From Bolinopsis microptera (Eukaryota; Ctenophora; Tentaculata; Lobata; Bolinopsidae), in the NCBI RefSeq assembly GCF_026151205.1, contig NC_087082.1, positions 17,701,401 through 17,765,400 on the forward strand: DNA of 64,000 bases, given 5' to 3'. Each line of letters starts with the position of its first letter. Position 1 is the first letter of the stretch. Position numbers and translations under genes: made by a program. Shown here piece after piece: positions 42,091 through 64,000 of this stretch. Below the pieces are notes generated by a model. That model ran no database searches and had not been told where the DNA came from. It worked only from the letters and a program-made list of their open reading frames with translations.

Positions 42091-43346
42091 CTGAAAGAGG
42101 TGGAATAAAGATGGCTGGTTGATAAGATTAGTTGATGCTGCGTTTATTTATATATAAAATCTAACCTACAAATAATTAATAATCCAATGCATCACCATAA
42201 TTAGAGTTACTGAAAAATATCATAAGATGTTCAAAGCATTATTGCTAGGAGTAAAATATCTAGTTTTAACGTGATTGGAATAAATTCTCATAAAACCTGA
42301 TTTCATATTTTGAATATTAAAACAGCATTACAGCACTTATCTAAACTAAACTGTCCAATTATAGAACAGCGTAACAGCTTAATTGAAGTAATTGGTGATG
42401 CTCTAACAAACCGTTCGTCTAAACAGGCATTAGTTATAATTATTTTGGCTATCGTTTAATAAAATTGAGACACTTCAAAGCCTAGAAACCTTTTCATTGT
42501 CTAGGATAATATTATATTATTATTATAATAATATTTATATACTTGCACAGCTGCACCAATAGCATTGTATGTTCTGCATTATTCAATAGACAATAATATG
42601 CTGGATTAATTAACAGTCGCACTAAGTACAATTAACGTTATCATAGTAGTATATTTATTCTTTATAGAGATACAGGTTCTTTTGCGATAGTCAAAACGCG
42701 ACAACTAGCGCTGGATGGCGACAACTAGCGCTATCCAGCGCTAGTTGTCGCCATCCAGCGCTAGTTGTCGCTATCCAGCGCTGGATAACGCTGGCCAGCG
42801 CAAAATATATATGTTCGATAATTGTCGCTATTCAGCGCTAGTTGTCGCCATCCAGCGCTAGTTGTCGCCATCCAGCGCTAGTTGTCGCTATCCAGCGCTA
42901 GTTGTCGCTGGCTATGCGACACTGTCGCACGCGATAGTTTGCGATGGCCAGCGCAACTGGCCATCGCAGAAAACAGTTCGATAACTAGCGCTGGATAGCG
43001 ACAACTAGCGCTGGATAGCGACAACTAGCGCTGGCCAGCGCTAAGCGATAGCCAGCGCTGGCCAGCGCTGGCCATCGATATCCAGCGTAAAATTTTTGCG
43101 CTATTAATCGTCAGCTAGCGCTGGCCAGCGCTAGCCAGCGCTAACCAGCGCTAGCCAGCGCTAGCCAGCGTTAGCCAGCGCTAGCCAGCGCTGGCCAGCG
43201 CTAGCCAGCGCAATGTATCAAAATCATATACTTGCGATATTACTCGGATGATGATTAATCACTTTACAGTTTACACTCGACTGTCACGTGACTTTTTTAA
43301 CCCATTCTCTGACTCTAGCTGGTTCTGAACGACTTTTTGAAACCCT

Positions 43347-43420
43347 AACCCTCTAATCTGATCCCAACCCTAACCCTAACCCAATCCTTAACAAAAACAT
43401 TTGCTGAAACCCTAACCCTA
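43347..43420. repeat. Interstitial telomere-like repeats (CCCTAA)
   Basis: Two short runs of ACCCTAACCCTAACC with degenerate spacers, in the core of the AGCGCT element, flanked on both sides by CACGTGA motifs. Confidence 0.9.
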
Positions 43421-43449
43421 ACGAGAAATTAGACTAACTTCCTTATACG

Positions 43450-43645
43450 GTCATATCACGTGATCGATACAGTTTTTCGCCAATATCTCGTCAGGATCAG
43501 AGCATTTTAACCCTATATCATGGGGGTTGATTCGGAATTAGCGTTCGAAAATACATTGCATCGATTGAAGTTGGTTACAACCATCGGGGGCCCTTTTAGA
43601 ACAATCTCAAAGATCGACTGTAGAGTGATTTAGCACGCTCGATAT
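43450..43645 (+). repeat. Conserved module, copy 1 (CACGTGA...TGATTCGGAATTAGCG)
   Basis: Begins with CACGTGAT, then GTTTTTCGCC, ATTTTAACCCTAT, TCATGGGGGTTGATTCGGAA, AGCGTTCGAAAATACA and GCCCTTTTAGAAC, and ends with GTGATTTAG. Order and spacing match the modules at 61.56 and 62.32 kb. Confidence 0.7.
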
Positions 43646-44713
43646 TAGTACTACTCGTCAGCCAGCACTGGCCAGCGCAATATAGTTGCGATATTACTCT
43701 TACTTACTGGTTAGCGCTGGTTAGCGCTGGTTAGCGCTGGTTAGCGCTGGTTAGCGCTGGCTAGCGCTGGCCAGCGCTAGCTGACGAGTAATAGCGCAAA
43801 AATTTTGCGCTGGATATCGATGGCCAGCGCTGGCCAGCGCTGGCTATCGCTTAGCGCTGGACAGCGCTAGTTGTCGCTATCCAGCGCTATTTGTCGCGAC
43901 AATTATCGAACATTTATCGAAAATTTATCAAAAATTGATATTTTGCGCTGGTTAGCGCTGGATAGCGCTGGCCAGCGCTGGCTAGCGCTGGCCAGCGCTG
44001 GCTAGCGCTGGATAGCGCTGGATAGCGACAACTAGCGCTGGATAGCGCTGGATAGCGACAACTAGCGCTGGATAGCGCTGGATAGCGACAACTTGCGCTG
44101 GATAGCGACAACTAGCGCTGGCCAGCGCTAGTTGTCGCCATCCAGCGCTAGTTGTCGCTATCCAGCGCTATCCAGCGCTAGTTATCGAACTGTTTTCTGC
44201 GATGGCCAGTTGCGCTGGCCATCGCAAACTATCGCGTGCGACAGAGTCGCATAGCCAGCGACAACTAGCGCTGGATAGCGACAACTAGCGCTGGATGGCG
44301 ACAACTAGCGCTGGATGGCGACAACTAGCGCTGGATAGCGACAATTATCGAACAAATATATTTTGCGCTGGCCAGCGTTATCCAGCGCTGGATAGCGACA
44401 ACTAGCGCTGGATGGCGACAACTAGCGCTGGATAGCGCTAGTTGTCGCCATCCAGCGCTAGTTGTCGCGTTTTGACTATCGCAAAAGAACCGAGATACAC
44501 TATAACTAAATAGTACAGTGATGTGGTTCCTTAGTCCTTATGGTTCGATTCATGTGTTATAGACATTAGATTAATCTGAGATCTGAGTCTATTACGAGAT
44601 TAAGGCTCAGATGATAATACACATATTGCCCCAAACCAGCTATTATAATTTAAATAGTAGTGGTGTTTTGCGGATCTGAATTACAAGGACTAACGCTTAT
44701 AGTGTACCCTTAC

Positions 44714-44749
44714 TTCGTCATTAGTGGCTGTGTCATCTCTTGCCATCAT
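44714..44749 (-). CDS. Candidate first coding exon A
   Basis: Minus-strand ATG ATG begins twelve codons (MMARDDTATNDE) that end exactly at a GTAAGG donor (44713). An in-frame TAA lies a few codons upstream, so this would be a true initiator exon. It ends in phase 0, but the first confirmed exon (42090) needs a phase-1 partner. Either an exon was missed between them or this belongs to another transcript. Confidence 0.3.
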
Positions 44750-47700
44750 ACAAATGATATTCCTTTAACTGACGTAGGTATATTGTAGATAAGTAGATCA
44801 AAGCAGATGAAGAGATACGTGGATAGATATATAATTTGTTTATGCATCGGGAGATCCATTCCAATTTCCGATTTTATGTAAAATGTCGACCCATGTTGTT
44901 TCCTAACTTTTAAAGTTTTAAACATTTTAAAAACGTTGCCACACAACCATAACAATTAATTTAATCACATGAAATATTGATATGGCTTAAGTTCCAGATT
45001 ACTCGATAAAATAGTTAGTCCAAAAGCCACACAAGCTTAACAATTTTAAAGTTAATTCGATCACACGAAACATTGATAGGAGCTAAGGTTCTATAAAATT
45101 AGATAGGAAAGTTATGATAGTTGTATATGGCAAGTTTATAGTGGGCTCCTATATTTCGTGCTTTCTATATTTCCTAGTTTTCACTGTAATTTCTTCATCT
45201 CAAGAAGAATTTGGTGAACATTCCAAATTTGTATTTCAGTACGCAATTGTTATATCATTTAAACATTAGTCTTGACATAGGAGTCAGGACCAGGACTGAC
45301 CCTGGCTCCTATGTCATGATGTCCGGACTAATGTTTAAGGACTGAACCTGGTAATCGCCGTATTATCATTTTACATGCTTAAGTAGTCATTCATGTCTCC
45401 AATCGGTCGTAGCCATCTCGTCTCATCAACTGTAATAGAGTACTAGAGACAGCGGTATCAGCCTGGCTAGGTTAATTACAGCTGCCCAACAGCTGGTCAT
45501 TACAGTGCTCATGATCCTCGAGTAGACTCGTCAGTCGCTGATTAGAGACTTTGAAAGTTGTTCATGTTTTCGTCATGCAACTTTTATTAACTCAAGTATA
45601 ATTTCATCGAGCATGTTTTTCCTTTAGCATGAATTTTAATTGGTAAACAAGTTTTTTAATAATTTTATAAAATTATTATAAACTGGTAAGATAATATTTC
45701 ATTGAAAAAATTACATTGGGGATTATAAGTATTAAGTAACAACATGAGCGGCCTGTCACAGCACCTGCGGAAACCAAAAATAAAAGGAATCAAGATCTCT
45801 TGTTATATTCCTTTGCAATTTAATTAACAAGTCTGAATCGTCTGCAGTTGATTCATGGACTTTCTAAATGGGGACTTAAACCGTGTTTATAACGTTTTCA
45901 TCGTGCAAATTAGATGAGAAATAGGAAGTTTGATCATTGTAATCTTTTTTGTTTCTTTTCTCAACGTTGTGTTCATTTTGTTTTACATTTAAATCGGCTG
46001 TATCTTCGGTTGGGATGGATATACTGACTTTCAGAGAATACTATTAGCTGATTAGCTTCCTAGTTCTTTCATAAAAAACCTTCGTACATTTTAAGACATA
46101 ACATCTTGACTTAGTATTTCATAGTTAGTTTCAACTACATTCGGGCTTTATCTCGCGCAGCACTGAACAAGGTATTATGGTATTGTAGCTGCAACCCTGT
46201 TATCATAATTCTCCTTGTGATGCGTACCTACTTGTACTTTGTTCCGGATCAATTTGTATTTTAGACTTCTTGAGCGGTTCAATAATTTATGCAAAATTGT
46301 CCTGGAAAGCTTTTACTTGCATCTGCTTATAGTTATATTGGGTTGATTATTGGCAACCCTGTCTAATCAGTATTCGCTACTCAGTGATGGTAAGATTGAT
46401 GTCAGGAATCCGCATTAGTAAGGAGATGGGAAATGAACGACAGTTAGACCCCGGTTAGACAATAATTATGTTCATTTAAAAAATTATGCATACAGTATTA
46501 CAGTACCCACGTTTTGACTCATCCGCATCATATTGGGAGTCCAGAATTCATCGTACAGAAATTAAGATCAAAGCTAGAGAATCAAACGCTTCAAATGGTT
46601 GCACCGAGCAGTACTTTCTGATTTTCAACATATTATTGATAATTTATGGAATCATCAAGTTGTGAGTTAACATATCAAAGCTTCAAAAGATGATAGCCTT
46701 TGACTTACAAGAATTATACTGTTAATTATACTGTTATGACTACTTGCGTAATTACGTTCATTATTCTTTATTTTTAAATCTTGACTTCGTGTATCCAAAC
46801 GTCTCCAGGTAAGCTCACACGCAGAATTGTCCAAAGAATCGTGAATTTTAAATATTGATTCAATATTTAAAATTAAATTCACCACCAATTTGGTTATTAT
46901 AATCTGCAAACCTCAATCTGGTTCAATTCAATATTATTGAATTGAACCAGATTGAGGTTTGCAGATTATAATAACCAAATTGGTGGTGAACTGATAGAGG
47001 AACTTTTATATCTTGATCATATCTAGTCAGAGTAAGAGCCCAGACTCCAGAACATTAGATGTTCTAACATGGATGTTACTGGTTTCTCCAATCATATAGT
47101 ATATATTTGATGAAAGTTTCAAAATCAAATTACGTGATCTCCTGGTCCCACTTCGTCGATCCAATCATTGAATTTGAAACAAGTTCTGAGGGTTCTCTAT
47201 CAATCCACAATCAGATAGGTTCAAAATATAACATCATGTTGTCATACCAATATAATTTCACGTGTATAAAGAAGTCATGATACTAACATTGGCCTGACAA
47301 GAATAATGGTCTGATAATCTGATACAATATTAGATTGTTGTGGGTTGAGCATCAGGGTAGAACTGATAATAATCACACCTCATGGTAACGTTAGTGGCTA
47401 GTGCTTTAACTTTAAGTAAGTCAAGCACAGGCCATGTCTTCAGTTGTGAATTTTGGTGCACCAACTAGGCATAGATCAGATATATATGAGGGGCTTTTTT
47501 TGGCTGATGAAATAATAAAGCTAAGGACCAAATTTCAAATTGGTTTAAATGAAGATAATGGCTTCTACCGCATATTTTTTCAGAATTAACGTTGATCGGA
47601 GATCAGATCAAAGATTAGATCATTACCCTCAGTGATCCCTCTAACGAACCTACCAAGCTTTTTCAGCACTTCATAATTATATTAATTCTACAATTAACAG

Positions 47701-49298
47701 GGTTGGGTGCCATAATGAGCTAATTGCTAATCCATCATAAAGGCTGCTAAAACACACTCTCTGCCTGCAATGCTGTACCCTTATAAATTATGTATTATCT
47801 CAAGCCAAAATCGACCACATCAACGTATATATTTAGTACGAATATTGTCAGCTAGTCTTTGTAATCACATAATCTGCCTTTGAAACAATAAAGTGCTAAC
47901 AATGTACAGTGCTAACAATGTACAGTGCTAACAATACTGTGCTACAAGGAAAAGGTACGTAAGAATAGCACACCAACAGGACCAAGCTCGTGAGCCTGGT
48001 TCACATTGCATGCTCTCTTTATATTTGACTCTCTGTAGCCGCCTGCCTCGCTCTTTTTTTAGCATGTTTTAAAAGGGAATATTTATTGAATTATTTTAAA
48101 GATTATCCCTTGGGAAATAAAAGTGCGTTGTTCTTCCTTTTTAGGACCAACTAAAACGATGTTTCAAGAGTCCGAGTTGATTTTTGCAAATTCAAAATCA
48201 AAATTAATGAACCCCATGGCCAGGTCACCTCCAATTTGATTCGTAAATCGGTAACCTTACATATGTACCATTGAGGGCCAGGTTAATTAAAACACAAGTC
48301 GATCTCAGTCTTATCAACGGTAAAATCTCGATGGACTTGGCTCAATCCTTAATCTGAAATTCCAGGCACCACTATTTATTCAGCCCGACTGCTATAGTTC
48401 TTACTCATCTCATACGATCGGGCAGATTAATTAGCAAGAACAGTGGGGTATATTTTGTCGCTGTTATTTTCGCATTTTAGTGCGTTCGTACGTCCATTTA
48501 AGAGATGAAACATTAGCCTTGGCCTGATTTAACGTCGCAGTACCTGATCCCCCCCCCCCCCCCCAGCAGCGATCGTATCATTGGTTCAATATTTCTGTAA
48601 TAAAAGTTGCGAAATCAAAAATCTCAGAAAGATGATTTTTGATCGAGATCTTTGTGTCTCCATTAGCAAGTCTCGTACGTCTCATGACTTTAAGGTATGA
48701 AAATAAAATGTAGGTAGCAAGTTTTAAGTAGTAAGTATTTCTCATGGCCAGGTTAAGAGTATGTCGGTAGCGGTTAGTAGGACCGTGTTGTTCATACTTT
48801 TATAGGCCACGCAAATAGCAGGTCTGACCAAGTAGCGTATTTAAGAGGGTGGTTTAAATTGACTTTGAGCTGTTCTAGGTATTAAAAACCTTTATTAGTA
48901 CTCTCCCTCCGCTCTACCTCTTAACTCAGCCCCTACATATAACTAAACTAGCAAACTACTAGGCGCTACTATTGCGATGTTTAAGAACATTATAACTATC
49001 AGAGCGTAACAAGGTCTGCCTGACAGGAAGCAGTATTATGTTAACGTTAAACTGTTAATTTATAACGCTGTCAAGTCTGGTTTTTTATTTGACTTCATAG
49101 AATTGCCTCTGATAAGACATATAAACTCATCTCTTTGAAAAAGTATTCACATAAGTATCATAAACAGATTAAACGGATTAAACGGATTAAACGTTAATTG
49201 GTCAAGAGAAGCCCTAACACTCCTGGTTTGACAATACAAGAATGAAATCATAACATAGAAATAAGATTCGAAAACCGTGAAGAAACAAATATTATAAT
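44750..49298. other. Intergenic or 5' intronic sequence
   Basis: Mostly unique AT-rich DNA. It holds an imperfect hairpin (45258-45340), a perfect palindrome (46878-46990), a 16 bp repeat GTACAGTGCTAACAAT (~47886-47937) and a 14-base C run (~48551). No supported exon. Confidence 0.45.
46878..46990. repeat. Perfect 113 bp palindrome
   Basis: 56 bp arms (TTCACCACCAATTTGGTTAT onward) meet at a single central T within CAATATTATTG, with no spacer and no mismatch that I can find. Confidence 0.92.
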
Positions 49299-49895
49299 TT
49301 AAGCTAAGTCTCTCGGGAAACGAAGTGCATCTATATCAACGAAAAATTTAGCAATTATCTCTTTTAAAAGCTTTGGTTGAGTGGATATGAGATCCATTCC
49401 CTCGAAGAGGTTGGTTTTAGCTTCAGGGCTAAGGCGGTCCCTGTTGTCTTGGTAGAGGGGGCAGGTTCTAAGCACATGAACCTCATCTTCAATTATGGGA
49501 TCAAAGAAGGGCAACTCTGCCATGTACTCCAGAGTGTTCTTGTCCTTAGTGGAACATGTAGAGCAGATACGATTTAGGATGTTGTTTCTTCTGACATGTC
49601 CATGGCGTCCCGTTTCAATATTTAGGCGGTGAGAGCTAGTCCTTATTTGGGCTAGTCTTTTTGACTGGTTATATAGTTATATGGAGGATAGAGAGAAGAT
49701 ATTTTTCACAACCAAAACGAATCGAATTGTAGAATTCAAGTTTTCTGTTGAGCTGTCTCTCTTCATCCCATTGCGTTCTAAAGCAAGAACGGAGAACATC
49801 TCGTTTCTGAATGGGTGATTTTTGCCTTTCGTTCGTTTCTGCCAGAAATTGATTCATCGACGTAATGCCGGAGTACCATGATAGGCCCATTTTCT
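49299..49895 (-). pseudogene. LINE (non-LTR) retrotransposon C-terminal fragment
   Basis: Two minus-strand frames, joined by a shift near 49675, give the characteristic tail of a LINE reverse-transcriptase ORF. First comes RQLNRKLEFYNSIRFGCEKY (49890 side), then KRLAQIRTSSHRLNIETGRH, RICSTCSTKD and DEVHVLRTCPLYQDNRDRLS, with a stop just before 49299. The CxxC...HxxxxC arrangement is the C-terminal zinc-knuckle seen in many LINEs. RT palm motifs are absent, so it is 5'-truncated. The clade cannot be assigned from this part alone. Confidence 0.65.
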
Positions 49896-52800
49896 TTTGT
49901 TCTGTGAAAGCATATCATATAATATTCACATAATATAAGTATCATATAATAACTTACCATACTTTGTAAAATACTAAGTTCTTATGTACATGTTCATTGT
50001 TCATGAGTCGCTTTAGATGGCTTGAACTGAATCTTGAGTTCTTTTTGGTTATAAAGCGATGTATAAATTTCTAATAAGAGGTCTCGACTGCCTAAGCATC
50101 AAACCTTGGCAGTCGGTAATTTTCCTTTGGCCCGGAGTCAGCTGACCCTAGGGACCAGAGGCAAGGTTTTTCTTAAATTTCAGCATATTTTTATTTTTAC
50201 CCGCCATAATAAATAAAATATGGCATAATAATTTTCGAAAATCCGCCATTATTTTTACCCGCCATTAATATACGAACTAAGGTAAGTATAAGCAGTAAAA
50301 GAGTTGCTCGGTAAGTCCATGAACATCGTCTTCATTTGTTTCAATACTGCAGCTAGCTGTTATGGTAAGCTTGAGAGAGTTCAAAGGTAGACTGGCGTTA
50401 CAGGTAGATTGAAGCTATTGCGGTTATTTCACCTATAAAGCACTGGTATAGTGTAGGTTATCGAAGCGCACTCCATATAATCTGATATAAAATGGTAGCT
50501 GCCCATTTAAACTATTCAACCTATTTAAACCATTTGCCAAGACTTTTAGCTAGGCGTGGTAGCCGTCGCGTCGATCATTGCTAAATCATAGGGGAATCGG
50601 ATTGAAATCTTTGCATTCTTAAACTTGGGTCAATCGTGCAACTGGGCAATAACCTATGCTTTAAATTCCGGTTTACTGTTATACAAGTAACGCGTTAACA
50701 GGTGACATTCGTAACTCGTTAAATATTTGTCCCAGGACCGTGGACGAGTTCAACTCGGCGCGTGTCTTGGCAGGTTATACTGTTCTAGTAAGGAGTATAA
50801 AGGTATGGAACTCAGTTCTTTTAATTTAGTTCAAGTATTAGTTTTTAGCTCCTACAAGAAATGCGGCCGCTTTTCTTTTGTGGATGGCCGCTCAATTTCC
50901 AGATCCGTGATGGCGTATTTTATCATATTTCATACAACCTGGGGACCCCATGAGGGTTTAGTGTTTACCCCCGAATTTTCAAAACCACCCCCCCCCCTCC
51001 CCGGACGTCCGGATTTCCAGCTACTTTTAGGAGTACAAATAAAACCAACTCAAATTCATTGTTAATAAAATTCAAAGAGTTGAAATAAAATTCAAAGAGT
51101 TGAAATAAATGGGACTTTTTCGTTAATTCTGCCAAAATTTCCGGACGTCCGGATTTTCAGAAACCACCCCCTCCCCCTGTCCGGATTTGTTCGAAATTCC
51201 AAAACCACCCCCCTCCCTATTTGCCGGACGTCCCCTTAGGAACGTGGGCGACATTTGTGCGTCCACGTTCCTAATATACCTGCGCAAAGTTATAACTAAT
51301 CGGGCACTTACGTACGTACGCAGGCAAGCACGCACGTACGACGGTCGCAACGGCAAAGCTACCATATACAAAAAAAAACTCGTTCGCTAACCCTTGTCCT
51401 TGACTCTTTTGTGCCTTCGGCACTTTGAGTCATGGATCGGGAAAAAATACTCATGACCCCCCCTCTATAGAAAATGCATCTTTTTTATTTTATTTTTCAA
51501 TAATTAATGATTAATTTTTGGCCACGTGAAAGTTGCTAGTTTAGTAGTCAGGCGTTAGCACATTCTGTCACGACGAAAGTTTGATATTTCACAGGCACAA
51601 AAAGGACCTTAATAAGAGAGGCATTGATTTATTTTTCATCCGAGGTGTTAATTTTCTATCTCGAGTTTCTATTGTCAAATGATTCTGGTACAAATATAGA
51701 GGATGACGTCAATGACCAATTACAAGTGGAGTGCTAAAAGCTATCCATCAGAGCTCCTCTCTGTAAAAGCAGTACTGTGAAACTGTGAAATCTTCTGCTC
51801 AGGCCTATATAAACACTAGTGTAATGGATATTGCTGCATTTCTGCATTTCCATTTCTGTGAAACTTTACATTAAGCGAAACCACTTAGGAGTTTGGTGCT
51901 AACTTATCACTCAACGTGGAGGCATCAGTTTCGTTGTCGATGTCACTTTAATATATATTATTCTTTAAGCTGGAGTTTCATTGATATCTTAGTTGTAGTG
52001 CACGTACGGAACGTTCACTAAAAATGTTCTGTACATACGTTCACTAAAACTCATCTCTCGTTCTGAACGTTATGGATAAATTACTAGTAGTGTTCAGTAG
52101 GATTCATTTACTCTAGTTCGACAAATTAAATTCGCCAGATATCACCCCTGTCGTACTTCGGCCCGGTACGTGTCGAAGATGGCGAACTAGAGTCCAGGTA
52201 GCGTACTTTAGTTCGATAAATAGTTTTTGCTTGTGATCCAATGGCTATTGCCGGGTCCTCATCATAGCATCACACGGTCCAATGGCAGATAAAGCAACCA
52301 TGAGCGGTTAGAAATTCCAGAACCTTTCAGTATAGTTTTTATTCTCCTGTTTGCCACTCAGTTCTGGTCTAGCTAATAGGAAAATAGATTGATATCCGAC
52401 TGTTTTCGATTCAGTAGCCAAATCTCTAGACCGGTACTCGGTTACTAGTCTTTTGTGGTAATATAAAGTGTGGTATGTGGTAGATATTTATAAAGCGTAC
52501 TCTACAATCTAGATCTATAAAACCGAGTAAGAGTTAATAGTAATACGTTAGTCTTTTATCTCTCCGCTAAGTCTACAATTCTGCTAACTAACAATTGACT
52601 TACGAGAATGAGGACAATTAAATGTTCATAGATGTTCATGAATAATTATCAGTTGGGGAAATTGATATTTCAAAAAGTTTATTTTCATGAATCACTGACG
52701 TTCACTAACGTTCACTAAAAATGACTGGAACATGCGTTCAATACGTAAAAATCCACTGTTCACTACAACTAAGATTGATATACTGAACTGCTTTATTCCA

Positions 52801-53033
52801 TTTTTCTTACTACAACGGATATGCATCTGTTGCTTTCCAGTCAGCGGTACTATAGTATTGGTAATTTTATCAATTTTGCGTTGCTGACAAATGGGTATGA
52901 GCTTTATACCTCCTTTAAGATTAAGATTCTATATAGTATGTGGTAGAAGAGACACTCAAACTGTCGTATTACAAATCAACTATTAAATTTCCTTATTTGT
53001 CGGCGAAATACTCGATAAAATCTCAATCCATAA
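49896..53033. other. Unannotated repeat-rich sequence
   Basis: Contains repeated TTTTTACCCGCCAT (50196, 50260), several C-rich CCACCCCC...CCGGACGTCCGG segments in both orientations (50984-51235), a small hairpin with CTCTAGTTCG ends (about 52119-52196) and scattered ACGTTCACTAAA copies (52012-52740). The segments look like decayed small DNA elements. No gene supported. Confidence 0.45.
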
Positions 53034-53224
53034 GGGGTCGTTCACATATTACCTACGTAATCAATATTTTAGCAATTTTTACCCCCTCCCCCCTCCGTAA
53101 TCAACCGTAATCAAGACCCAACCCCCCACCCCCCTTCTGACAGTAATATTACGTAATCATGGCCTGACCCCCCCCCCCCCCCTTTGACTTTTTTTCCCTG
53201 ATTACGTAATATGTGAACGACCCC
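53034..53224. mobile_element. 191 bp Harbinger-like MITE with TAA target duplication
   Basis: The ends GGGGTCGTTCACATATTACC and the inverse of GTAATATGTGAACGACCCC are inverted repeats, flanked by TAA on both sides (53031-53033, 53225-53227). A 3 bp TWA duplication is characteristic of PIF/Harbinger. The interior is C-rich and non-coding. Confidence 0.7.
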
Positions 53225-53319
53225 TAATAGTCGGTATAAGCTGACAGTTATTTGTCAGCAAAGATAATCGATATTTCCAATACTACTACCATAGTGCAAT
53301 ATCATAGGATTACTATAAG

Positions 53320-54162
53320 TACTGGTACTGGTAGTACTGGTACTGGTACTGGTAGTACTGGTAGTACTGGTACTGGTACTGGTAGTACTGGTACTGGTAC
53401 TGGTAGTACTGGTAGTACTGGTACTGGTACTGGTAGTACTGGTACTGGTACTGGTAGTGGTACTGGTAGTACTGGTACTGGTAGTACTGGTACTGGTACT
53501 GGTAGTGGTAGTGGTACTGGTAGTGGTACTGGTAGTACTGGTAGTACTGGTACTGGTAGTACTGGTACTGGTACTGGTAGTGGTAGTACTGGTACTGGTA
53601 CTGGTAGTACTGGTACTGGTACTGGTAGTACTGGTAGTACTGGTAGTACTGGTAGTGGTACTGGTAGTACTGGTAGTGGTACTGGTAGTACTGGTACTGG
53701 TACTGGTAGTACTGGTAGTACTGGTAGTACTGGTACTGGTAGTACTGGTAGTACTGGTAGTACTGGTAGTACTGGTAGTACTGGTAGTACTGGTACTGGT
53801 AGTACTGGTACTGGTAGTACTGGTAGTACTGGTACTGGTACTGGTAGTACTGGTACTGGTACTGGTAGTACTGGTACTGGTACTGGTAGTACTGGTACTG
53901 GTACTGGTAGTACTGGTAGTACTGGTACTGGTAGTACTGGTACTGGTACTGGTAGTGGTACTGGTAGTACTGGTAGTACTGGTACTGGTAGTACTGGTAC
54001 TGGTACTGGTACTGGTAGTGGTAGTACTGGTACTGGTACTGGTACTGGTACTGGTACTGGTAGTACTGGTAGTACTGGTAGTACTGGTACTGGTAGTACT
54101 GGTACTGGTAGTACTGGTAGTACTGGTAGTACTGGTAGTACTGGTAGTACTGGTAGTAAGTA
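53320..54162. repeat. Compound GGTACT/GGTAGTACT array (843 bp)
   Basis: Built only from GGTACT, GGTAGT and GGTAGTACT blocks, so every unit is a multiple of 3 and all but a few frames on both strands remain open. The predicted Gly/Thr/Ser, Val/Leu, Pro/Val/Leu and Gln/Tyr polymers are by-products. Confidence 0.95.
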
Positions 54163-54200
54163 GTAGTTAGCTGCATCTCTCGTGTACTGTCCCTCTTCAG

Positions 54201-54446
54201 TTTTCACTACTAAGCTTGCTCTTGAGTAGTAATACTAATAGCGGGAGTTCATATAGTAGGCGGACTGAATCCTTACCGCACACTCTAGCCCTACTGGTAG
54301 ATAAATTTAGGGATTCAGTCTGTTTAAGTGGAGACCGAGAACAAAAGGAATCGCGAATTTTTAGACCAAAATTGCCTCGCCGCAAAGCCAAACATCCTAA
54401 GTTCAATGCTCTGACCAGAAAAACATTGCGAACATGCCACGATTAA
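54201..54446 (+). CDS. Possible terminal exon on the plus strand
   Basis: A strong acceptor-like run (TGTCCCTCTTCAG, ending 54200) is followed in phase 0 by 81 codons and a TAA. The second half has protein-like composition, for example VDKFRDSVCLSGDREQKESR followed by basic IFRPKLPRRKAKHPKFN. It sits just downstream of the GGTACT/GGTAGTACT array. I found no upstream plus-strand exon that joins to it, so it could be a retroelement scrap or chance. Confidence 0.28.
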   Translation, partial: FSLLSLLLSSNTNSGSSYSRRTESLPHTLALLVDKFRDSVCLSGDREQKESRIFRPKLPRRKAKHPKFNALTRKTLRTCHD

Positions 54447-54917
54447 CTTTTGTCTTTGGTGCAGAATGTACCAGGCAGAATAGTGAATACTCGACTCACG
54501 ACTAAACGTCGAATATTTGGTTTATTGTCTGGAGGATAAGCACAATATGTGAGAACTCACTTGTAATTAACATAACCGTTGGATGTACTTATATTCCACC
54601 GGAGAACTATTGTTTGCAGTAAAACAGCTCCGGAGTCTCTCAGCTGTTCACATTAGTTTAGAGGTTCAAAGTGTTTTTAATCACAGACCACATCAAACTG
54701 TTCTGTTTATACATACTTTAACTTAACTAATGTTGTCTTAAAACGTCTATTGAGAAAGATTATTAATATATATACATATGTATGCATGTTTTTTCTTCGC
54801 GAACTTATCTTTGTCGTTCTGTTAGTTCATTTTATGGCATGCATGTCAGATTAATATTTGGTTGGATGTATCTGACCAAATAATAATTAGATATGCATTG
54901 CATTTAGCTTATGGCTC

Positions 54918-56339
54918 CTACAGCTCTGGGTAGCAACTAGCAATATCTACAGCTCTGGGTAGCAACTAGCAATATCTACAGCTCTGGGTAGCAACTAGCA
55001 ATATCTACAGCTCTGGGTAGCAACTAGCAATATCTACAGCTCTGAGTAGCAACTAGCAATATCTACAGCTCTGGGTAGCAACTAGCAATATCTACAGCTC
55101 TGGGTAGCAACTAGCAATATCTACAGCTCTGGGTAGTAACTAGCAATATCTACAGCTCTGGGTAGCAACTAGCAATATCTACAGCTCTGGGTAGCAACTA
55201 GCAATATCTACAGCTCTGGGTAGCAACTAGCAATATCTACAGCTCTGGGTAGCAACTAGCAATATCTACAGCTCTGGGTAGTAACTAGTAATATCTACAG
55301 CTCTGGGTAGTAACTAGCAATATCTACAGCTCTGGGTAGCAACTAGCAATATCTACAGCTCTGGGTAGTAACTAGCAATATCTACAGCTCTGGGTAGTAA
55401 CTAGCAATATCTACAGCTCTGGGTAGCAACTAGCAATATCTACAGCTCTGGGTAGCAACTAGCAATATCTACAGCTCTGGGTAGCAACTAGCAATATCTA
55501 CAGCTCTGGGTAGCAACTAGCAATATCTACAGCTCTGGGTAGCAACTAGCAATATCTACAGCTCTGGGTAGCAACTAGCAATATCTACAGCTCTGGGTAG
55601 TAACTAGCAATATCTACAGCTCTGGGTAGCAACTAGCAATATCTACAGCTCTGGGTAGTAACTAGCAATATCTACAGCTCTGGGTAGCAACTAGCAATAT
55701 CTACAGCTCTGGGTAGCAACTAGCAATATCTACAGCTCTGGGTAGCAACTAGCAATATCTACAGCTCTGGGTAGTAACTAGCAATATCTACAGCTCTGGG
55801 TAGCAACTAGCAATATCTACAGCTCTGAGTAGCAACTAGCAATATCTACAGCTCTGGGTAGCAACTAGCAATATCTACAGCTCTGGGTAGCAACTAGCAA
55901 TATCTACAGCTCTGGGTAGTAACTAGCAATATCTACAGCTCTGAGTAGCAACTAGCAATATCTACAGCTCTGGGTAGCAACTAGCAATATCTACAGCTCT
56001 GGGAAGCAACTAGCAATATCTACAACTCTGGGTAGCAACTAGCAATATCCACAGCTCTGGGTAGCAACTAGCAATATCTACAGCTCTGGGTAGCAACTAG
56101 CAATATCTACAGCTCTGGGTAACAACTAGCAATATCTACAGCTCTGGGTAGCAACTAGCAATATCTACAGCTCTGGGTAGCAACTAGCAATATCTACAGC
56201 TCTGAGTAGCAACTAGCAATATCTACAGCTCTGGGTAGCAACTAGCAATATCTACAGCTCTGAGTAGCAACTAGCAATATCTACAGCTCTGGGTAGTAAC
56301 TAGCAATATCTACAGCTCTGAGTAGCAACTAGCAATATC
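54918..56339. repeat. 29 bp tandem array, 49 copies
   Basis: The unit CTACAGCTCTGGGTAGCAAC plus TAGCAATAT repeats with a strict 29 bp period over 1,422 bp. Variation is almost only GCAAC/GTAAC and GGG/GAG. Confidence 0.96.
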
Positions 56340-56628
56340 TTGGGTTTATCTCCAAATTAAGACACAGGGCCAGCGGACCTCGAAAGAACAGTGGTTTTCT
56401 TTACCAAACAGACTTGATCTGAATATCATGAACCAGAATATGAAGTCTATTGAGTAAGTCATAACTAGATTACTAATCATCACAATGGTGTGAAATTTCT
56501 GATCGCTCATTTTAAGAAAGGTAATATCAATATTAATATGATCTGTCGTTAGTAGCATTTTGATTGAAACGTCGACCATAACCTTCCTTAAAGCGGACGT
56601 GCCTCCTTTGTCGTTCATACCATGTGAT

Positions 56629-57068
56629 TATTGCGAACACTCGACCATGTGATTATTGCGAACACTCGACCATGTGATTATTGCGAACACTCGACCATGT
56701 GATTATTGCGAACACTCGACCATGTGATTATTGCGAACACTCGACCATGTGATTATTGCGAACACTCGACCATGTGATTATTGCGAACACTCGACCATGT
56801 GATTATTGCGAACACTCGACCATGTGATTATTGCGTACACTCGACCATGTGATTATTGCGAACACTCGACCATGTGATTATTGCGAACACTCGACCATGT
56901 GATTATTGGGAACACTCGACCATGTGATTATTGCGAACACTCGACCATGTGATTATTGCGAACACTCGACCATGTGATTATTGCGAACACTCGACCATGT
57001 GATTATTGCGAACACTCGACCATGTGATTATTGCGAACACTCGACCATGTGATTATTGCGAACACTCG
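56629..57068. repeat. 25 bp tandem array, 17-18 copies
   Basis: The unit ACCATGTGATTATTGCGAAC plus ACTCG is nearly invariant; single changes are GCGTAC (~56834) and TGGGAAC (~56908). Confidence 0.96.
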
Positions 57069-57756
57069 AAATGCGGCTTATAAACATTAACAATTTTCCG
57101 ATCCAAAAAGTACACAACCGCGTTTTGTTTTATTTTCTCACCACACTGTTATAAATTTAAGAAGTTCGCTTTACTTTCATTGGTGCAGAAATTTAAGCTA
57201 TTAAAGAGCTAGGCTCTAAGACTTTAAGTTTAAACATATAATGATTTAATGGTTATCAACTTTTTGTATGTAATCTTTTCTCTATGACTACTCATGTTAG
57301 CGTTTACGAGGAGCTCGTCTTTAATCTTTATATTAACTTAGCTGGGTGTTATATCATTGGTTATTCCTGAAGCGCGAGCGCGGCTCTACGAGCTTGCCTT
57401 TGTTTAACTTTATTTAACAAATTAATCACAAATTATACAGCTTTAATTAATTAATTAATCATCTTAACTTTTTATAAGTCAACCAAGTTGAAGCCATTTT
57501 ATTAGACATTTAAAGTTGGCTATGTGTCATTTGTTTTACACGAAGTTGTATAAGTTTGCAATTTCGTGCGGTCGAATAACGGTTAGTTTTTAATCGGTCC
57601 AGATCGAAGTTAGATAAGCTTCTTCGTCATTTTGCTATTGTTTGATACTTTATTTCATACAGTAATCACAAAATTGAATTTATGTACAGGTTCAATTACA
57701 TACCCCAAAACAATTTATGACTGAAACAAATTGAAGTTCATGTCATTTAATTTTAA

Positions 57757-57951
57757 ATGATTCTAATACATGACAACAATGGTTGTGTCGTAAATTTGGA
57801 TAATTACGACCAAGACATAATATATACCTTCTCAGTTCTTATTACCTTTGAGCGGACATATTTTGTTAAAAAGCATTTATACGTTATTAGGTATATTAGT
57901 GTTAGTGTTGATACGGAGGGAGATTGTCCTGCACTGATTTTCGATATTCAA
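57757..57951 (+). CDS. Possible plus-strand exon (65 codons before a donor)
   Basis: An ATG directly after an in-frame TAA opens 65 codons (MILIHDNNGCVVNLDNYDQD to CPALIFDIQ) that end in phase 0 at a GTGAGC donor-like site. The composition looks protein-like and beta-rich. No acceptor exon with matching phase and length was found downstream. Treat it as unproven. Confidence 0.18.
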
Positions 57952-58775
57952 GTGAGCGTATTATTATAAAATCACTGAAGGGAGGAGGGGTATGAGAGTC
58001 AGACCCCTGAACACTGAACAGCAGTCATGATCACAACCTGAACGTGATGAAAATTCAGCTAACTACTTCGCAATCTCGAATTTAATCTTGCGTGGAAATA
58101 TGACATAATTATATTACTTTTCGGTAAATGAGTTTAATCGAGATTTTAAATTGCTTTTTTGTCACCTTCCAGAACATTTTAGTTTTTTTAAATTGGTATT
58201 AAATAAGCTGTAGTGAAAGTCGTACGTATGTAATTCATTAATCGGTGTGATGAGTCCTTTACGCGTAGTTATGCTGATATCACGACCACTCACAAATTGA
58301 AATTATGATTCAGGATTAGGAAGTTGGGGGTTTAGTAAAACTGGGTGTATAACATTAACTGGGTGTATAAGCTTGTACTCAATCCTACATTCAGATACTT
58401 TTACCGCGTGAAACTTAATTCTTGACAATTTAAAATAACATAACTAGAAGATGTAATCTTGCAAAATGTCAATTTAATGGTTGCGCTTTAAGGTTGAAAA
58501 TCAATCCTTGTCGGTATTTATAATAACTCTAATTGTAAAATTGTAAAATTGTTCTGAATACTAGTTTTCAGAAGCATTCGGTTTATATTAGACAATATAC
58601 TCGATCAGTGGCAATCGAGCACAGTCATTCTGTTTCAATAAGATGAGAATAATGTCAAGCACTCGTGATTTGTTTCTATCTATATCCAGCACCAAGAAAC
58701 AATATTGATAAACTGTTTAAAAACCAGTCACTATTTGACTGAACTGTACGAAAAGTTATAGTCTGGATAACTTAC

Positions 58776-58811
58776 CACGTCTTCTTCATCGCGCAAAACA
58801 ATAGATTGCAT
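58776..58811 (-). CDS. Candidate first coding exon B
   Basis: Minus-strand ATG starts twelve codons (MQSIVLRDEEDV) ending at a consensus GTAAGT donor (58775). Like candidate A, it ends in phase 0 and has the same length. It may be a distal alternative start for the large gene, or a chance ORF before a donor-like site. No matching phase-0 acceptor exon was found downstream. Confidence 0.25.
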
Positions 58812-58935
58812 TGTAAGGTTAATAAATTAAATGAGCGAACAGTCTGTCATGTGATACTCATTGACTACCTTATCGGGTATTTATTTGTAAAGGTATTTAT
58901 TTGTTTTGTCTTTTGGAACTTTTGTCTTTTGGCAG

Positions 58936-59161
58936 TACGGGCCACTCCCCAGTCAATCAATCAAACCCCATCACAAACACGCCGCACAGCACTGACCAGT
59001 ACTCAAACAGTAGTCTAGTCGGCGTGTTGTTTAAAAAGCAACAGTGGCTTGGGTTATGTCATTTGTCGTCGGGTTTTATTATTTATAGCTGTGGCAAACT
59101 CGCGACAGAAATTGTTGTCCTTGGCCCAGCTGATATTATACAGAACGACCTGGGACAATAA
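58936..59161 (+). CDS. Possible plus-strand terminal exon
   Basis: A pyrimidine-rich acceptor (TTTTGTCTTTTGGCAG, ending 58935) precedes a frame reading TGHSPVNQSNPITNTPHSTD, then VGVLFKKQQWLGLCHLSSGF, to a TAA at 59159. A second frame is also open for about 25 codons, so the choice is uncertain. It overlaps nothing else recognisable and starts 124 bp from candidate exon B on the other strand. Confidence 0.2.
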
Positions 59162-59245
59162 CTATTTTAATGTGATGATGGGTAGAGGCAGAGCCGTAGA
59201 GGCGATATCTTTCTTTCTTTTTCTATATCTAAAATCTTAATGCAC

Positions 59246-59330
59246 GACTATAAATACCTATTAATACCTATAAATACCTATAAATACCTATAAATACCTA
59301 TAAATACCTATAAATACCTATAAATACCAT
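59246..59330. repeat. 10 bp tandem repeat (TATAAATACC)
   Basis: About eight head-to-tail copies; the first is TATTAATACC. Confidence 0.95.
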
Positions 59331-59906
59331 CAGTTCTCAGGTTTCACCTATTCTGCTTTCTCTGATTTAATTTTAATGTCTTTTATTGAAAAAAAGGCGT
59401 AGCATTGTGTTCATTATAAGCATGTTAATGGTTTTTAAAGACCATCTTGGCAATCTTCCAGCTTTATGATTCTACGCAAGCTGTGGGCGAAGGTGGCAAA
59501 TAGCAATGCCCCATTTTAATTACCTAGTTTTTTCAACATTTTAGGGATAGGCTTGAAATCTCAATAAAAACTTTTTAGCCCACGTTTGGTTGGGATTGGT
59601 ATTTAAATTGCTGCAAAATTTTAAGATTCAGTGAAGAAATTTTGTATGAGTCCCGTGTGCGCCATATAAATTTTCTTGAACTTTTCGTTATTTAGTTTGT
59701 AAGTATTTTGCCCGTTTGCCCAAAAATTGGGGAATAAATGGGCATGTAGTTGCCTCCTCCTGATACTGAAGTATGTTATATGATCTAGTAATCTATATTC
59801 AGCGAGATCTGTTGTCAAGATAAATTGCTTATAAATTTTAAAGAATTTATTTTCACTGAAATGATATCCTTGTCAGGCGCGAAGGTTGGTGGCTTTGTTT
59901 GCCATC

Positions 59907-60216
59907 TCTATATATAAAGCGAGACGATATATATGTGTATATATCCGTACCATTTTACTGACGCCACGGTATCAAATTTAATGCGACTTTCCGCAAAAAC
60001 GTAAAAGATATACAACTGAACCTTTTTTGACTGGGTCAAATGCTTTCATGGCCTCCAAATCAGCATGAAAAAATAAAAAAAAGGCCAAGGAATTAAGGAA
60101 TAGGAATTTTAGAGCCCAAGTGGTGTCAAAAACGCGAATTAAATAGGTAATAATTATTTTAATCTCTTGAGTCTTGACACCATTTTAGGGTTATCCGTTA
60201 TACGGGTTCCTGCTAG
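59907..60216 (-). repeat. Dispersed ~310 bp repeat, copy 2 (inverted)
   Basis: Inverted copy of 15896-16201 with matching end points (CTATATATAAAGCGAGACG to ACGGGTTCCTGCTAG), differing by scattered substitutions and small indels. The matched ends suggest a discrete mobile unit. Confidence 0.8.
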
Positions 60217-60329
60217 GCTAATTTCACCCTCAAATATTTCACTTCCTTTTTCTTGCCTCTAAAATATCACGTCTTTTTAAAGTATACATTTGGGCAAGTT
60301 TCCATAAACGATATTTTATGATCGTCGCC

Positions 60330-61319
60330 GATAATCGCTTATTGAGCGCTTTTTCGGCGCTTTTTTTTTTAAAACCCGTTTACAATCGCTTTTTTTACGA
60401 TTATAAACGGTTCAAAAAAAATCGCTTATAATCGACTATAATTGATGTCATAATTCAAAAAAGCGCTTTTTTGAATTTAAAAGCGCTTATAAGCGCTTTT
60501 AAGCGCTTACTAGCGTCGCTGAGCGATTTGAAAGCGGTTTTCCAGTAGGATTGGCGCCAAAAACGGGTGGATAAGCGGTTGGCCGGATTAGCGATTCGTA
60601 GGCGCTTTTTTGAACCATTTATAAGCGATTATAAGCGCTTATAAGTGGGGTGCAATTTAGCTGTTTGTAAAGCGCAAACAAAGCGCTTATAAGCGCTTTT
60701 AAAATTGAGTCAGGAAAACGCTATATTACATCTTATAACCGCTTATAATCTATTATAATCGCTTTTTTAGAAATCGCTTATAACGGCTAATTCATCGCTA
60801 TTTTACCGCTTTTACCGCTTTTCCTATCATCCATGGCCAGGTGAGCAGGAATTAAAAAGCGCTTATAAGCGCTTTTTCGATGCTGCCCCTAACCTGGTCG
60901 GAACGGGGTAGTGCCCGGAATTTAAAAGCGCTTATAAGCGCTTTTTCAATGCTGCCCCTAACCTGGTCGGAACGGGGGAGTGCCCGGAATTAAAAAGCGC
61001 TTATAAGCGATTTCTCAATTCCCCTTTGGCTTTACCTGGTCGAGTCGGAACTGGAAATCAGAGTGCCCGCTTATAAGTGCTTTTCTGTGCAACCTGGGCC
61101 TGGGGTGCACCGGCAGAGTCAGGATTTAAAAGCGCTTATAAGCGCTTATGATCGCTTTTCTACCGCTTTTCCTATCGCCCATGGCCTGGTTGGCAGGAAT
61201 TAGAAAGCGCTTATAAGCACTTTTTCAATGCTGCCCCTAGCCTAACCTGGTCGGAACAGGGGAGTGCCCGGAATTAAAGAGCGCTTATAAGCGCTTTCTC
61301 AATGCCCCTTAACCTGGTA
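60330..61319. repeat. AAGCGCTTATAAGCGCTT palindrome-rich block with ~70 bp sub-array
   Basis: Dozens of GCGCTT/AAGCGC and GCTTATAAGCG palindromes. From about 60840 to 61319 they sit in a ~70 bp unit that also carries TGCTGCCCCTAACCTGGTCG and GGAACGGGG.GTGCCCGGAA, in about six diverged copies. Non-coding. Confidence 0.85.
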
Positions 61320-61562
61320 AAAGTCGCGTAATTTGACCAAATTCGTAGATTTTTGTCGTATTATTTCGGACACTTTCCTTGTAAGTCTATGAGTAAGCTC
61401 ACCAATTTTTGTTGCAATCGGAGGTCGGGAAGGATACTCAATATCTTTTTGTTTGAAGAAAATTGTGCTGGCCGAAATTAGCGCTAAAAACCATACTACT
61501 ATACAGTCGGCACGCGCGGCTCACTGTCGATGGCGGACTACCTATCTGGATAGAGCAACGGC

Positions 61563-61745
61563 AGCACGTGACTAAAAGTAAAACGGTTTTTGCCCATGTA
61601 ACTCTCCAGGGAAGTATTTTTACCCTACTTCATGGCGGGTGATTCGGGATCAGCGTCCAAAAAATACACCGATTCAGATCAATATCATACCCAAAGGCCT
61701 TTTCACAAGAATTTTCTTAAAATTTGGGCGAGCGATTTCGTAGGA
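61563..61745 (+). repeat. Conserved module, copy 2
   Basis: CACGTGACT, GTTTTTGCCCATG, CTCTCCAGGGAAG, ATTTTTACCCTACTTCATGG, GGTGATTCGGGATCAGCGTC, AAAAATACACCGATTCAGAT, CCTTTTCACAAGAATTTTCT and GGGCGAGCGATTT. Closely related to copy 3; not preceded by telomere-like repeats. Confidence 0.8.
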
Positions 61746-62206
61746 GCGACTCAAACGCGCAAGCTGGCGCGGTTTATTTGTTGCAGTTTTACTACAATGG
61801 GGTGACATATGTTTTCGTCACTTCTGAATGCGCGCATTTTAGCGCGCGAGTTTGCGTGCACGTCACGTGATATTGTTAGCAGTGAGTGTAATCACGAGTC
61901 TGGAGAATTTGTCTGGTACAAGGCCCAGACCCTTTGGCATATCTGTAGTAAATTTTTTGGCGATGTAATATCTATGACCAATGACACCACTAAAAATTGA
62001 GGAATTGGGAAGTGTTCACAATATCCAACTTAGCATGGTAAACTTATGCTATCTCTGGCTGAAGATTAACAACTCTAACAGTATTTATTTTAATCAACTG
62101 AGAAACATTTGGTCTTGTTACCGGCTTTTACTAATTCGCTCGCCCAAAAATTTCACGTGACTTTGGTTTTTATGGTTTTGCAGCCGTACAAAACGGTTTT
62201 ACATAA

Positions 62207-62293
62207 ACCCTAATCCCAACCCTAACCCTAACCATAACCCCGAAGCTATCCATAACCCTAACCACAACCCTAACCCTAACCCGAGCCCTAAAC
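62207..62293. repeat. Interstitial telomere-like repeats (CCCTAA)
   Basis: Degenerate and perfect CCCTAA units between two CACGTGA motifs (62154 and 62324), the same arrangement as near 43.3 kb. Confidence 0.9.
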
Positions 62294-62323
62294 AATCGAA
62301 TTCATGTTTTATTACCATGTCAC

Positions 62324-62493
62324 GTGACCAAAACGGTTTTTTGCCCATAACTCTCCAGGGAAGCATTTTTACCCTACGTCATGAGGGGTGATTCGGAATC
62401 AGCGTCCAAAAATACACCGATTCAGATTACTTTCATACCCATAGGGCCTTTTCACAAGAATTTTCTTAAAATTTGGGCGAGCGATTTAGTAGA
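62324..62493 (+). repeat. Conserved module, copy 3
   Basis: Same order as copy 2 with few differences (TTTTTTGCCCATA, CCCTACGTCATGAGGGGTGA). Preceded by telomere-like repeats and a further CACGTGACTTT at 62154. Confidence 0.8.
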
Positions 62494-63796: not shown

Positions 63797-64000
63797 CATA
63801 CAGGACAACCGCCACCATTAACAACATATAAATAAACGCTTGCAAGCGCTTTACAATTTCTGACAATTATTGTCGGAGAACTTTGCCGCGCCGTGCACTT
63901 AGCCTTTTTGCTTGGCTTCTAGATCGCCAGTCAAACAACTATGTTTAAATCCATGTTGATAAATGATAGATAAAGCGGTAAAAACCAGTAATAAAAAGTG

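What the first reader, a model, noticed from the sequence alone, without database searches (positions are those of the whole stretch)
43250..62493. CACGTGA - telomere repeats - CACGTGA - conserved module cassette, present twice
Around 43.30-43.65 kb and 62.15-62.49 kb the same order appears: CACGTGACTTT, degenerate and perfect CCCTAA repeats, CACGTGA, then a ~170 bp module (TTTTxGCCxATA, TTTTxACCCTA, TCATGxGGGxTGATTCGGAA, AGCGTxC, AAAATACA). A third module lacks the telomere part (61563). The flanks are different palindrome-rich repeats (AGCGCT and AAGCGCTT). A shared core with swapped palindromic arms suggests a modular repeat class I cannot match to a known element. CACGTG is an E-box, so a protein-binding or replication role is possible.
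Basis: partly seen in the sequence, partly recalled or inferred. Interest (0 to 1): 0.78.

Follow-up and report, generated by a model that had tools for sequence, protein, structure and literature searches.

The report
Mobile DNA families sharing one core
The repeated cassette is a pair of short, non-coding "jumping gene" families in what appears to be a comb jelly genome; their ends have diverged, but both keep nearly the same inner 100 bases next to telomere-like repeats, which suggests that this inner part helps them spread.

Summary
The "cassette" is two related non-autonomous terminal-inverted-repeat transposon families (MITEs), A and B. The window's A copy (62123-62497) has an exact 9-bp target duplication. 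A truncated A right half lies at ~61565-61748. B (43246-43641) is nested in a long-palindrome (foldback) transposon, 42675-44491, with its own 8-bp duplication. Foldback copies with an empty site exist, so the "swapped palindromic arms" are another transposon, not part of the cassette. The core 20-mer has 1,329 exact genome hits, mostly far from contig ends; one end cluster on C2 is unexplained.

A and B consensuses are both 375 bp, with both CACGTG boxes, the telomere-like block and the core at matching offsets. The core is strongly conserved (best 60 columns, 56 identical; shuffle maximum 40), while ends and flanks have largely diverged. Individual copies decay in much of the core as elsewhere, except perhaps its 20-mer. 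I infer a cis-acting DNA site that helps copies multiply. No autonomous partner was found; the superfamily (Merlin or Mutator-like) is undecided. The host is probably the ctenophore Bolinopsis microptera, inferred from assembly figures. A telomere or replication role has little support.

The parts
42675..44491 (+). Foldback (long-palindrome) non-autonomous TIR transposon, 1817 bp; TIR GGTTCTTTTGCGATAGTC; arms 42675-43000/44166-44491, 99% complementary; AGCGCT-rich
   Evidence: ends shared with other copies; 8-bp target duplication in 14 of 16 fetched copies (0-1 mismatch) and in the window
42667..42674 (.). Left 8-bp target duplication of the foldback element (GAGATACA)
44492..44499 (.). Right 8-bp target duplication of the foldback element (GAGATACA)
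43246..43641 (+). Family B MITE nested in the centre of the foldback element
   Evidence: free-standing B copies elsewhere have 9-bp target duplications
43237..43245 (.). Left copy of the B target duplication (ATATTACTC)
43642..43656 (.). Right copy of the B target duplication, read as having a 6-bp insertion (ATATTA GTACTA CTC)
   Evidence: an empty site (L117) reads TTGCGATATTACTCGTCAGCC without the extra bases
43285..43290 (.). E-box 1 (CACGTG) of B
43341..43421 (+). Telomere-like (CCCTAA) block of B
43457..43462 (.). E-box 2 (CACGTG) of B
43457..43560 (+). Conserved core of B with near-palindrome TGATTCGGAATTA at 43528-43540
62123..62497 (+). Family A MITE, 375 bp; TIR GGCTYTTACTAATTCGCTCGCCC / CGCTYCTACTAAATCGCTCGCCC
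62114..62122 (.). Left 9-bp target duplication of A (CTTGTTACC)
62498..62506 (.). Right 9-bp target duplication of A (CTTGTTACC)
62154..62159 (.). E-box 1 (CACGTG) of A
62206..62291 (+). Telomere-like (CCCTAA) block of A
62321..62326 (.). E-box 2 (CACGTG) of A
62318..62420 (+). Conserved core of A with palindrome TGATTCGGAATCA at 62389-62401
61565..61748 (+). Truncated family A copy: only the right half (aligned to A 208-375 at 61580-61748); by eye it begins at E-box 2 with a short insertion after it

Best explanation
SHOWN: A (62123-62497) and B (43246-43641) belong to two dispersed families of short TIR transposons without long open frames that make 9-bp target duplications. B sits in the middle of a foldback transposon that makes 8-bp duplications; other foldback copies carry B at the same altered site and others have the site empty, so B inserted once and the composite then multiplied. 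A and B are collinear relatives of the same consensus length whose ends and flanks have diverged while the region from E-box 2 through the TGATTCGGAATCA palindrome stayed nearly identical. INFERRED: they are moved in trans by a transposase that leaves a 9-bp stagger (Merlin-like or Mutator-like). The conserved core is a double-stranded DNA site in cis, probably bound by a host protein or by the transposase, that raises the chance that a copy multiplies; it is kept in master copies while individual insertions mostly decay freely. The telomere-like block is a retained internal spacer or binding array, not a telomere.
For: Target duplications: A, 9 of 9 of L003-L011 exact (8 independent, since L005 and L009 look like one duplicated insertion; L002 shares the window's insertion; the ends of L012 were not both matched). 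C1 sample: 8 of 18 A and 15 of 19 B copies with both ends called have a 9-bp duplication with at most 1 mismatch (chance 1.6e-4 each). Foldback: 14 of 16 plus the window. Nesting: L042 and L088, two other foldback copies, share the window's altered B duplication; two copies with the site empty, L117 and L118, lack the core. Core: consensus A vs B 86 of 100 columns in the best 100 and 56 of 60 in the best 60, against a maximum of 40 in 300 shuffles; left flank 121/211 (shuffle mean 105.8, sd 4.1), right flank 46/82 (mean 41.0, sd 2.7). Landmarks coincide: E-box 1 at 32/33, E-box 2 at 199/199, palindrome at 267/267, length 375/375. Within-family divergence outside the 20-mer is not clearly lower in the core (A in the C1 sample: 0.046 and 0.052 against 0.034-0.094 elsewhere; B: 0.034 and 0.010 against 0.019-0.046). 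No RNA fold better than shuffles in 4 of 4 strands tested, so a DNA-level site is likelier.
Against: No autonomous element was found, so the mobilising enzyme is unproven. The C1 sample was chosen by an exact 20-mer inside the core, which biases that part and could hide families with other cores. Two results hint that resident copies are also protected: in the 11 A copies not chosen by the 20-mer, the 20-mer has 0 changes in 220 cells against 69 in 3,904 elsewhere, and the short B stretch after the 20-mer has 2 in 208. Core similarity could also come from exchange between families. No binding or activity data exist here.
Confidence: 0.72

Rival explanations
1. The core is shared because of recombination or gene conversion between A and B copies, not because it has a function.
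For: Both families are abundant and interspersed. Some copies mix A-like and B-like letters in the core (CAGGGAAGC...CTATGTCATG at C1:127480 and C1:21151329). Rearranged and fused halves occur.
Against: The A and B consensuses keep distinct differences across the core. The landmarks lie at the same offsets along the whole 375 bp, not only in the core. Some mixed letters can also be CpG decay.
Confidence: 0.2
2. A host-exapted regulatory or chromatin-loop anchor: individual copies are kept by the host as protein docking sites.
For: In the ctenophore Mnemiopsis, promoters in loops are rich in DNA transposon insertions and loop anchors hold a GC-rich motif bound by CTEP1/2 (PMC12221973, passages and section 9). 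The 20-mer is unchanged in 11 A copies that were not chosen by it (0 of 220 cells).
Against: Much of the core outside the 20-mer decays about as fast as elsewhere. The CTEP motif letters are not given in the text that I saw, so no match could be tested.
Confidence: 0.1
3. A telomere- or replication-related element.
For: Telomere-like repeats upstream of 48 of 60 sampled cores, bracketed by CACGTG boxes in both consensuses. Some excess near ends in the 28-mer listing: C1 6 of 66 within 0.5 Mb (2.5 expected, p=0.04); C2 10 of 34 listed in the first 0.5 Mb (1.6 expected, p=2e-6), all in one cluster of about 0.28 Mb.
Against: The first 100 core hits are even along C1 (Kolmogorov-Smirnov p=0.45). 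7 of 80 B-type hits are within 0.5 Mb of a contig end (3.7 expected, p=0.08) and 8 of 80 within 1 Mb (7.5 expected, p=0.47). Deletion derivatives without the telomere block exist (L037, L038). The structure is that of a mobile element with TIRs and target duplications.
Confidence: 0.07

Closest known systems
MITEs (miniature inverted-repeat transposable elements)
   Same: Short (375 bp; MITEs are given as 80-500 bp in PMC2874221, passages), no long open frame, imperfect TIRs, target duplications, high dispersed copy number
   Different: Families usually share ends (recalled); here two families share the interior and have diverged ends. Telomere-like block between two CACGTG boxes.
Merlin superfamily (IS1595-type transposase)
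   Same: 8-9-bp target duplications and 5'-GG at the left end, as described in passages of PMC8101967; 58 matches to the Merlin-type transposase family in the same genome
   Different: Right ends of A and B begin CG, not GG; none of 12 Merlin loci scanned carries A, B or foldback ends at its own termini
Mutator/MULE superfamily and foldback elements
   Same: About 9-bp target duplications (Mutator size recalled); 88 MULE-domain matches in the genome; long palindromic arms of the 42675-44491 element resemble foldback elements (recalled)
   Different: A and B have short TIRs (about 25 bp); none of 12 MULE loci scanned carries A, B or foldback ends at its own termini
SINE highly conserved domains; MER6 MITE carrying the V domain (PMC6887750, abstract)
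   Same: A short conserved domain of uncertain function kept while the rest of a non-coding mobile element changes; MER6 is also a MITE
   Different: No sequence relation was tested; here the domain lies in two TIR families, and no SINE was looked for

Membership tests
MITE / non-autonomous TIR transposon | Terminal inverted repeats | tested here: met
   A: 23 of 26 positions; B: 19 of 26
MITE / non-autonomous TIR transposon | Target site duplication of constant length | tested here: met
   9 bp in A and B
MITE / non-autonomous TIR transposon | Short, no transposase coding capacity, many dispersed copies | tested here: met
   375-bp consensus; longest stop-free stretch 76 codons in the window's A and 40 in its B (ORFs); 1,329 exact core 20-mers
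MITE / non-autonomous TIR transposon | An autonomous partner with the same ends | tested here: inconclusive
   None found: one A-end pattern search, 24 transposase loci scanned, two isolated A ends followed up; no such pattern search for B ends
Merlin | 8-9-bp duplications | tested here: met
   definition
Merlin | TIRs with terminal 5'-GG at both ends | tested here: not met
   A and B: GG left, CG right. The foldback element has GG at both ends
Merlin | IS1595-type transposase between these ends | tested here: inconclusive
   12 Merlin loci scanned (of 58 matches), none with A, B or foldback ends at the element termini; a B MITE lies beside one, L103
Mutator/MULE | MULE transposase between these ends | tested here: inconclusive
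   12 MULE loci scanned (of 88 matches), none; an isolated A end lies beside one, L095, and a weak foldback-like end (4 mismatches of 18) in L108 was not followed
Mutator/MULE | About 9-bp target duplication (recalled) | tested here: met
Telomeric or subtelomeric repeat | Concentration near chromosome ends | tested here: inconclusive
   Even along C1; 7 of 80 within 0.5 Mb, p=0.08; 28-mer listing: C1 6 of 66, p=0.04, and a cluster of 10 at the start of C2

The most novel reading that the evidence does not exclude
The core (E-box 2 through the TGATTCGGAATCA palindrome) is a portable docking site for a ctenophore host protein. Different ends have come to surround it, and the resulting MITEs have seeded more than a thousand identical binding sites, most of them beside telomere-like repeats, through the genome, possibly feeding the loop-anchor system of ctenophores. 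It would be a DNA-transposon counterpart of the conserved central domains of SINEs.
Probability: 0.2. Interest if true: 0.68.

Novelty: new variant of a known kind. Interest (0 to 1): 0.42.

Why it matters
MITE families are usually defined by their ends, which the transposase reads. Two families that keep the interior and change the ends suggest that non-coding transposons may be selected for an internal cis site. That makes a long-standing puzzle, why short non-coding mobile elements carry conserved domains, directly testable with binding assays in an early-branching animal lineage. The nested composite also explains how a core can seem to have swapped arms.

Tried and rejected
RNA structure of the core: 4 of 4 strands folded no better than shuffles (z +0.68 to +1.31). 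Rfam MIR474 hits in the palindromic arms (44028-44187): dismissed as hairpin artefacts, because they match both strands of an AGCGCT palindrome. Viral origin of the core: one 20-base pattern, 0 exact matches in viral contigs. Coding: no long open frame; my first ORF list used a minimum of 130 aa, which could not have tested a 375-bp element.

Autonomous partner: an A-end pattern with excluded interior gave 10 hits. Eight carry the MITE interior with one base changed; one of these (C8:11870158) lies inside an A copy listed. C5:18827833 was fetched but not analysed; its interior reads like a deletion. C9:6657906 has a different interior, with ORFs that look like a RAPGEF-type host gene (recognised by eye) and no partner end. 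An isolated A end beside a MULE (L095) ran 6 kb without a partner. The first fetch for it went to the wrong side because I misread the locus orientation.

Third core family: the fused right-half element L031 has only 2 near-full matches (40 of 808 candidates scored), and these share flanks, so it is a duplicated locus and not a shown family. All 60 sampled cores align best to A (36) or B (24).

Literature: no paper holds both 'miniature inverted-repeat' and 'telomere-like repeats'; none holds the core 15-mer; one nematode review holds all of 'telomeric repeats', 'MITEs', 'interstitial telomeric' and 'terminal inverted repeats' (listing only); the four papers with ctenophore, MITE and transposon looked unrelated from the listing. 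These searches cover only the held open-access library.

Mended on re-checking: the end-of-chromosome test was first reported alone; the 28-mer listing (counted) is less clear, so I moved subtelomeric concentration from 'not met' to 'inconclusive' and that rival from 0.05 to 0.07.
Full report
What is there. The two cassettes and the third module are real and far beyond chance. The assembly has 264,652,675 bases in 232 contigs, and contig C1 has 26,206,493 bases. Bolinopsis microptera is listed with 265 Mb, 13 chromosomes and a largest chromosome of 26.2 Mb in Table 1 of PMC11797021 (passages). I infer that the host is this ctenophore; no sequence identification was done here, and that table lists 346 scaffolds against 232 here.

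The 62-kb copy. The best genome matches to 62110-62510 mostly stop at about 62123 and 62498 (40 of 2,308 candidates were scored). Fetched copies have imperfect TIRs, GGCTYTTACTAATTCGCTCGCCC and CGCTYCTACTAAATCGCTCGCCC, and 9 of 9 of L003-L011 have an exact 9-bp target duplication. L005 and L009 look like one insertion in a duplicated stretch; the ends of L012 were not both matched. The window copy has CTTGTTACC on both sides. It lies in a larger stretch also present on C12 with the same target duplication (L002). The third module aligns to A positions 208-375 at 61580-61748 and by eye begins at E-box 2, so it is a truncated A.

The 43-kb copy. It sits in the centre of a 1,817-bp foldback transposon, 42675-44491, whose outer arms (326 nt) are 99% complementary and whose ends match other copies. 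In 14 of 16 fetched copies and in the window there is an 8-bp target duplication with at most 1 mismatch (L017 and L027 have none). The cassette inside it is family B, 43246-43641. Free-standing B copies have 9-bp duplications. The foldback copies L042 and L088 show the same altered B duplication as the window (ATATTACTC / ATATTAGTA). The query for the pre-insertion site found matches spanning the junction (best: C13:11865248-11865330, 91%; 40 of 238 candidates scored). Two fetched copies, L117 and L118, have AGCGCT repeats, at least one foldback end and the empty site (L117 exactly TTGCGATATTACTCGTCAGCC), and no TGATTCGGAAT core. So B inserted once and the composite multiplied. I read the right B duplication in the window as ATATTA GTACTA CTC, that is, the target plus 6 bases.

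How many and where. The core 20-mer has 653 + 676 = 1,329 exact hits, 0 in the reversed control. The first 100 listed hits are even along the first 17.4 Mb of C1 (Kolmogorov-Smirnov p=0.45; 5 in the first 0.5 Mb against 2.9 expected). A B-type 35-mer has 154 hits, of which 100 were listed. On the six contigs with complete listings and known length (C2, length unknown, and C8, listing cut, were dropped, 10 hits each), 7 of 80 lie within 0.5 Mb of an end (3.7 expected, p=0.08) and 8 of 80 within 1 Mb (7.5 expected, p=0.47). A 28-mer from another part of the core has 659 hits, 100 listed: on C1 6 of 66 lie within 0.5 Mb of an end (2.5 expected, p=0.04), and on C2 10 of the 34 listed lie in the first 0.5 Mb (1.6 expected, p=2e-6), all B-type in one cluster of about 0.28 Mb. 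Most copies are thus interstitial, but some excess near ends is not excluded; the C2 cluster is unexplained and may be local duplication.

Sample. From the 100 listed C1 hits I selected 80 by rank and fetched 60; 20 selected and 20 unselected were not fetched. All 60 align best to A (36) or B (24). At least 2 CCCTAA lie within 400 bp upstream in 48 of 60 (0 of 2,000 random 400-bp stretches of the window's first 42 kb); E-box 2 is in its usual place in 45 of 60 and E-box 1 in 26 of 60. AGCGCT-rich arms occur in 2 of 60 and AAGCGCTT in 3 of 60. So copies need neither palindromic arms nor telomere repeats. With both ends called (up to 5 errors for A; up to 7 left and 5 right for B), 8 of 18 A and 15 of 19 B copies have a 9-bp duplication with at most 1 mismatch. 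Some of the failures are probably ends that I placed wrongly, for example L043; a few copies (L064 and L075; L037 and L038) look like duplicates of one insertion.

The conserved core. Consensuses were built from 23 A and 16 B copies; copies without both ends or of odd length were left out by a length filter. Both are 375 bp. CACGTG is at 32 and 199 in A and 33 and 199 in B; TGATTCGGAATCA is at 267 in both. The best 60 alignment columns have 56 identities (shuffle maximum 40 in 300) and the best 100 have 86. The left flank is weakly similar (121 of 211; 0 of 300 shuffles reach it) and the right flank barely (46 of 82; 11 of 300 reach it). The two families are therefore collinear relatives whose ends changed while the core stayed. 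Within families, the core outside the 20-mer diverges at 0.046 and 0.052 in the A copies of the C1 sample (other regions 0.034-0.094) and at 0.034 and 0.010 in B (others 0.019-0.046). Resident copies are thus mostly not protected, and constraint on the multiplying copies is the simpler reading. Two results lean the other way: in the 11 A copies chosen by overall similarity and not by the 20-mer, the 20-mer has 0 changes in 220 cells against 69 in 3,904 elsewhere, and the short B stretch after the 20-mer has 2 in 208. RNA folds are unremarkable and there is no long open frame, so I favour a DNA site.

What moves them. No autonomous partner was found. The genome holds 58 Merlin-type and 88 MULE-type matches. 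I scanned 24 of these loci (12 and 12): one Merlin (L091) and MULEs L106 and L107 show their own GG-ended TIRs with 8- or 9-bp duplications, and none has A, B or foldback ends at its termini. A B MITE lies beside a Merlin (L103). A left A end without the MITE interior lies next to a MULE (L095), but no right end follows in 6 kb. Merlin elements have 8-9-bp duplications and terminal 5'-GG (PMC8101967, passages); A and B have GG at the left end and CG at the right. I therefore leave the superfamily open.

Known context. In Mnemiopsis, promoters in loops are rich in DNA transposons, and CTEP1/2 bind a GC-rich motif with two CpGs; in placozoans a loop motif lies in Mutator TIRs (PMC12221973, passages and section 9). 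I did not see the motif's letters, so any link to this core is a hypothesis only. A MITE with a conserved domain has a precedent in MER6, which carries the SINE V domain (PMC6887750, abstract).

Verdict. The finding is two MITE families and one nested composite, with an unusual conserved interior. The transposon identity is strong; the role of the core is an inference.

Noticed in passing
G000 contig C1: 2.45, 11.96, 12.19, 12.54, 16.24, 17.12, 22.18, 24.30, 25.54 Mb: Perfect TTAGGG arrays of 36 bp or more occur at nine interstitial places on C1 and none is listed at its ends.
   Followed up: no
window 38502-39110 +: 202-aa open frame that looks to me (recalled) like the endonuclease part of a Penelope-like retroelement; Pfam gave no family at E 0.01.
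   Followed up: partly
window 60461-61297: Array of AAGCGCTT-centred palindromes in a larger repeat that, with the truncated and full A copies, is also present on C12 (L002), about 95% alike.
   Followed up: partly
window 61799-62866: Inverted GGGGTGACAT...ATGTCACCCC ends about 1,070 bp apart that enclose the A element; possibly an older transposon.
   Followed up: no
window 63415-63800: 47-nt, 100% complementary arms with GGCCGAGGAGGGTCATT repeats; another palindrome-rich element.
   Followed up: no
G000:C2:124749-400663: Ten core-pattern hits in about 0.28 Mb near the start of C2, all B-type; a local cluster.
   Followed up: partly
window 54918-56340; 16285-17629; 12132-12908: Long tandem arrays: 29-bp unit (49 copies, 97%), about 42-bp unit (32 copies), 23-bp unit (33 copies).
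   Followed up: no
L030; window 61565: Two A copies begin almost exactly at E-box 2, so the right half may break or move as a unit there (the window copy by eye).
   Followed up: no
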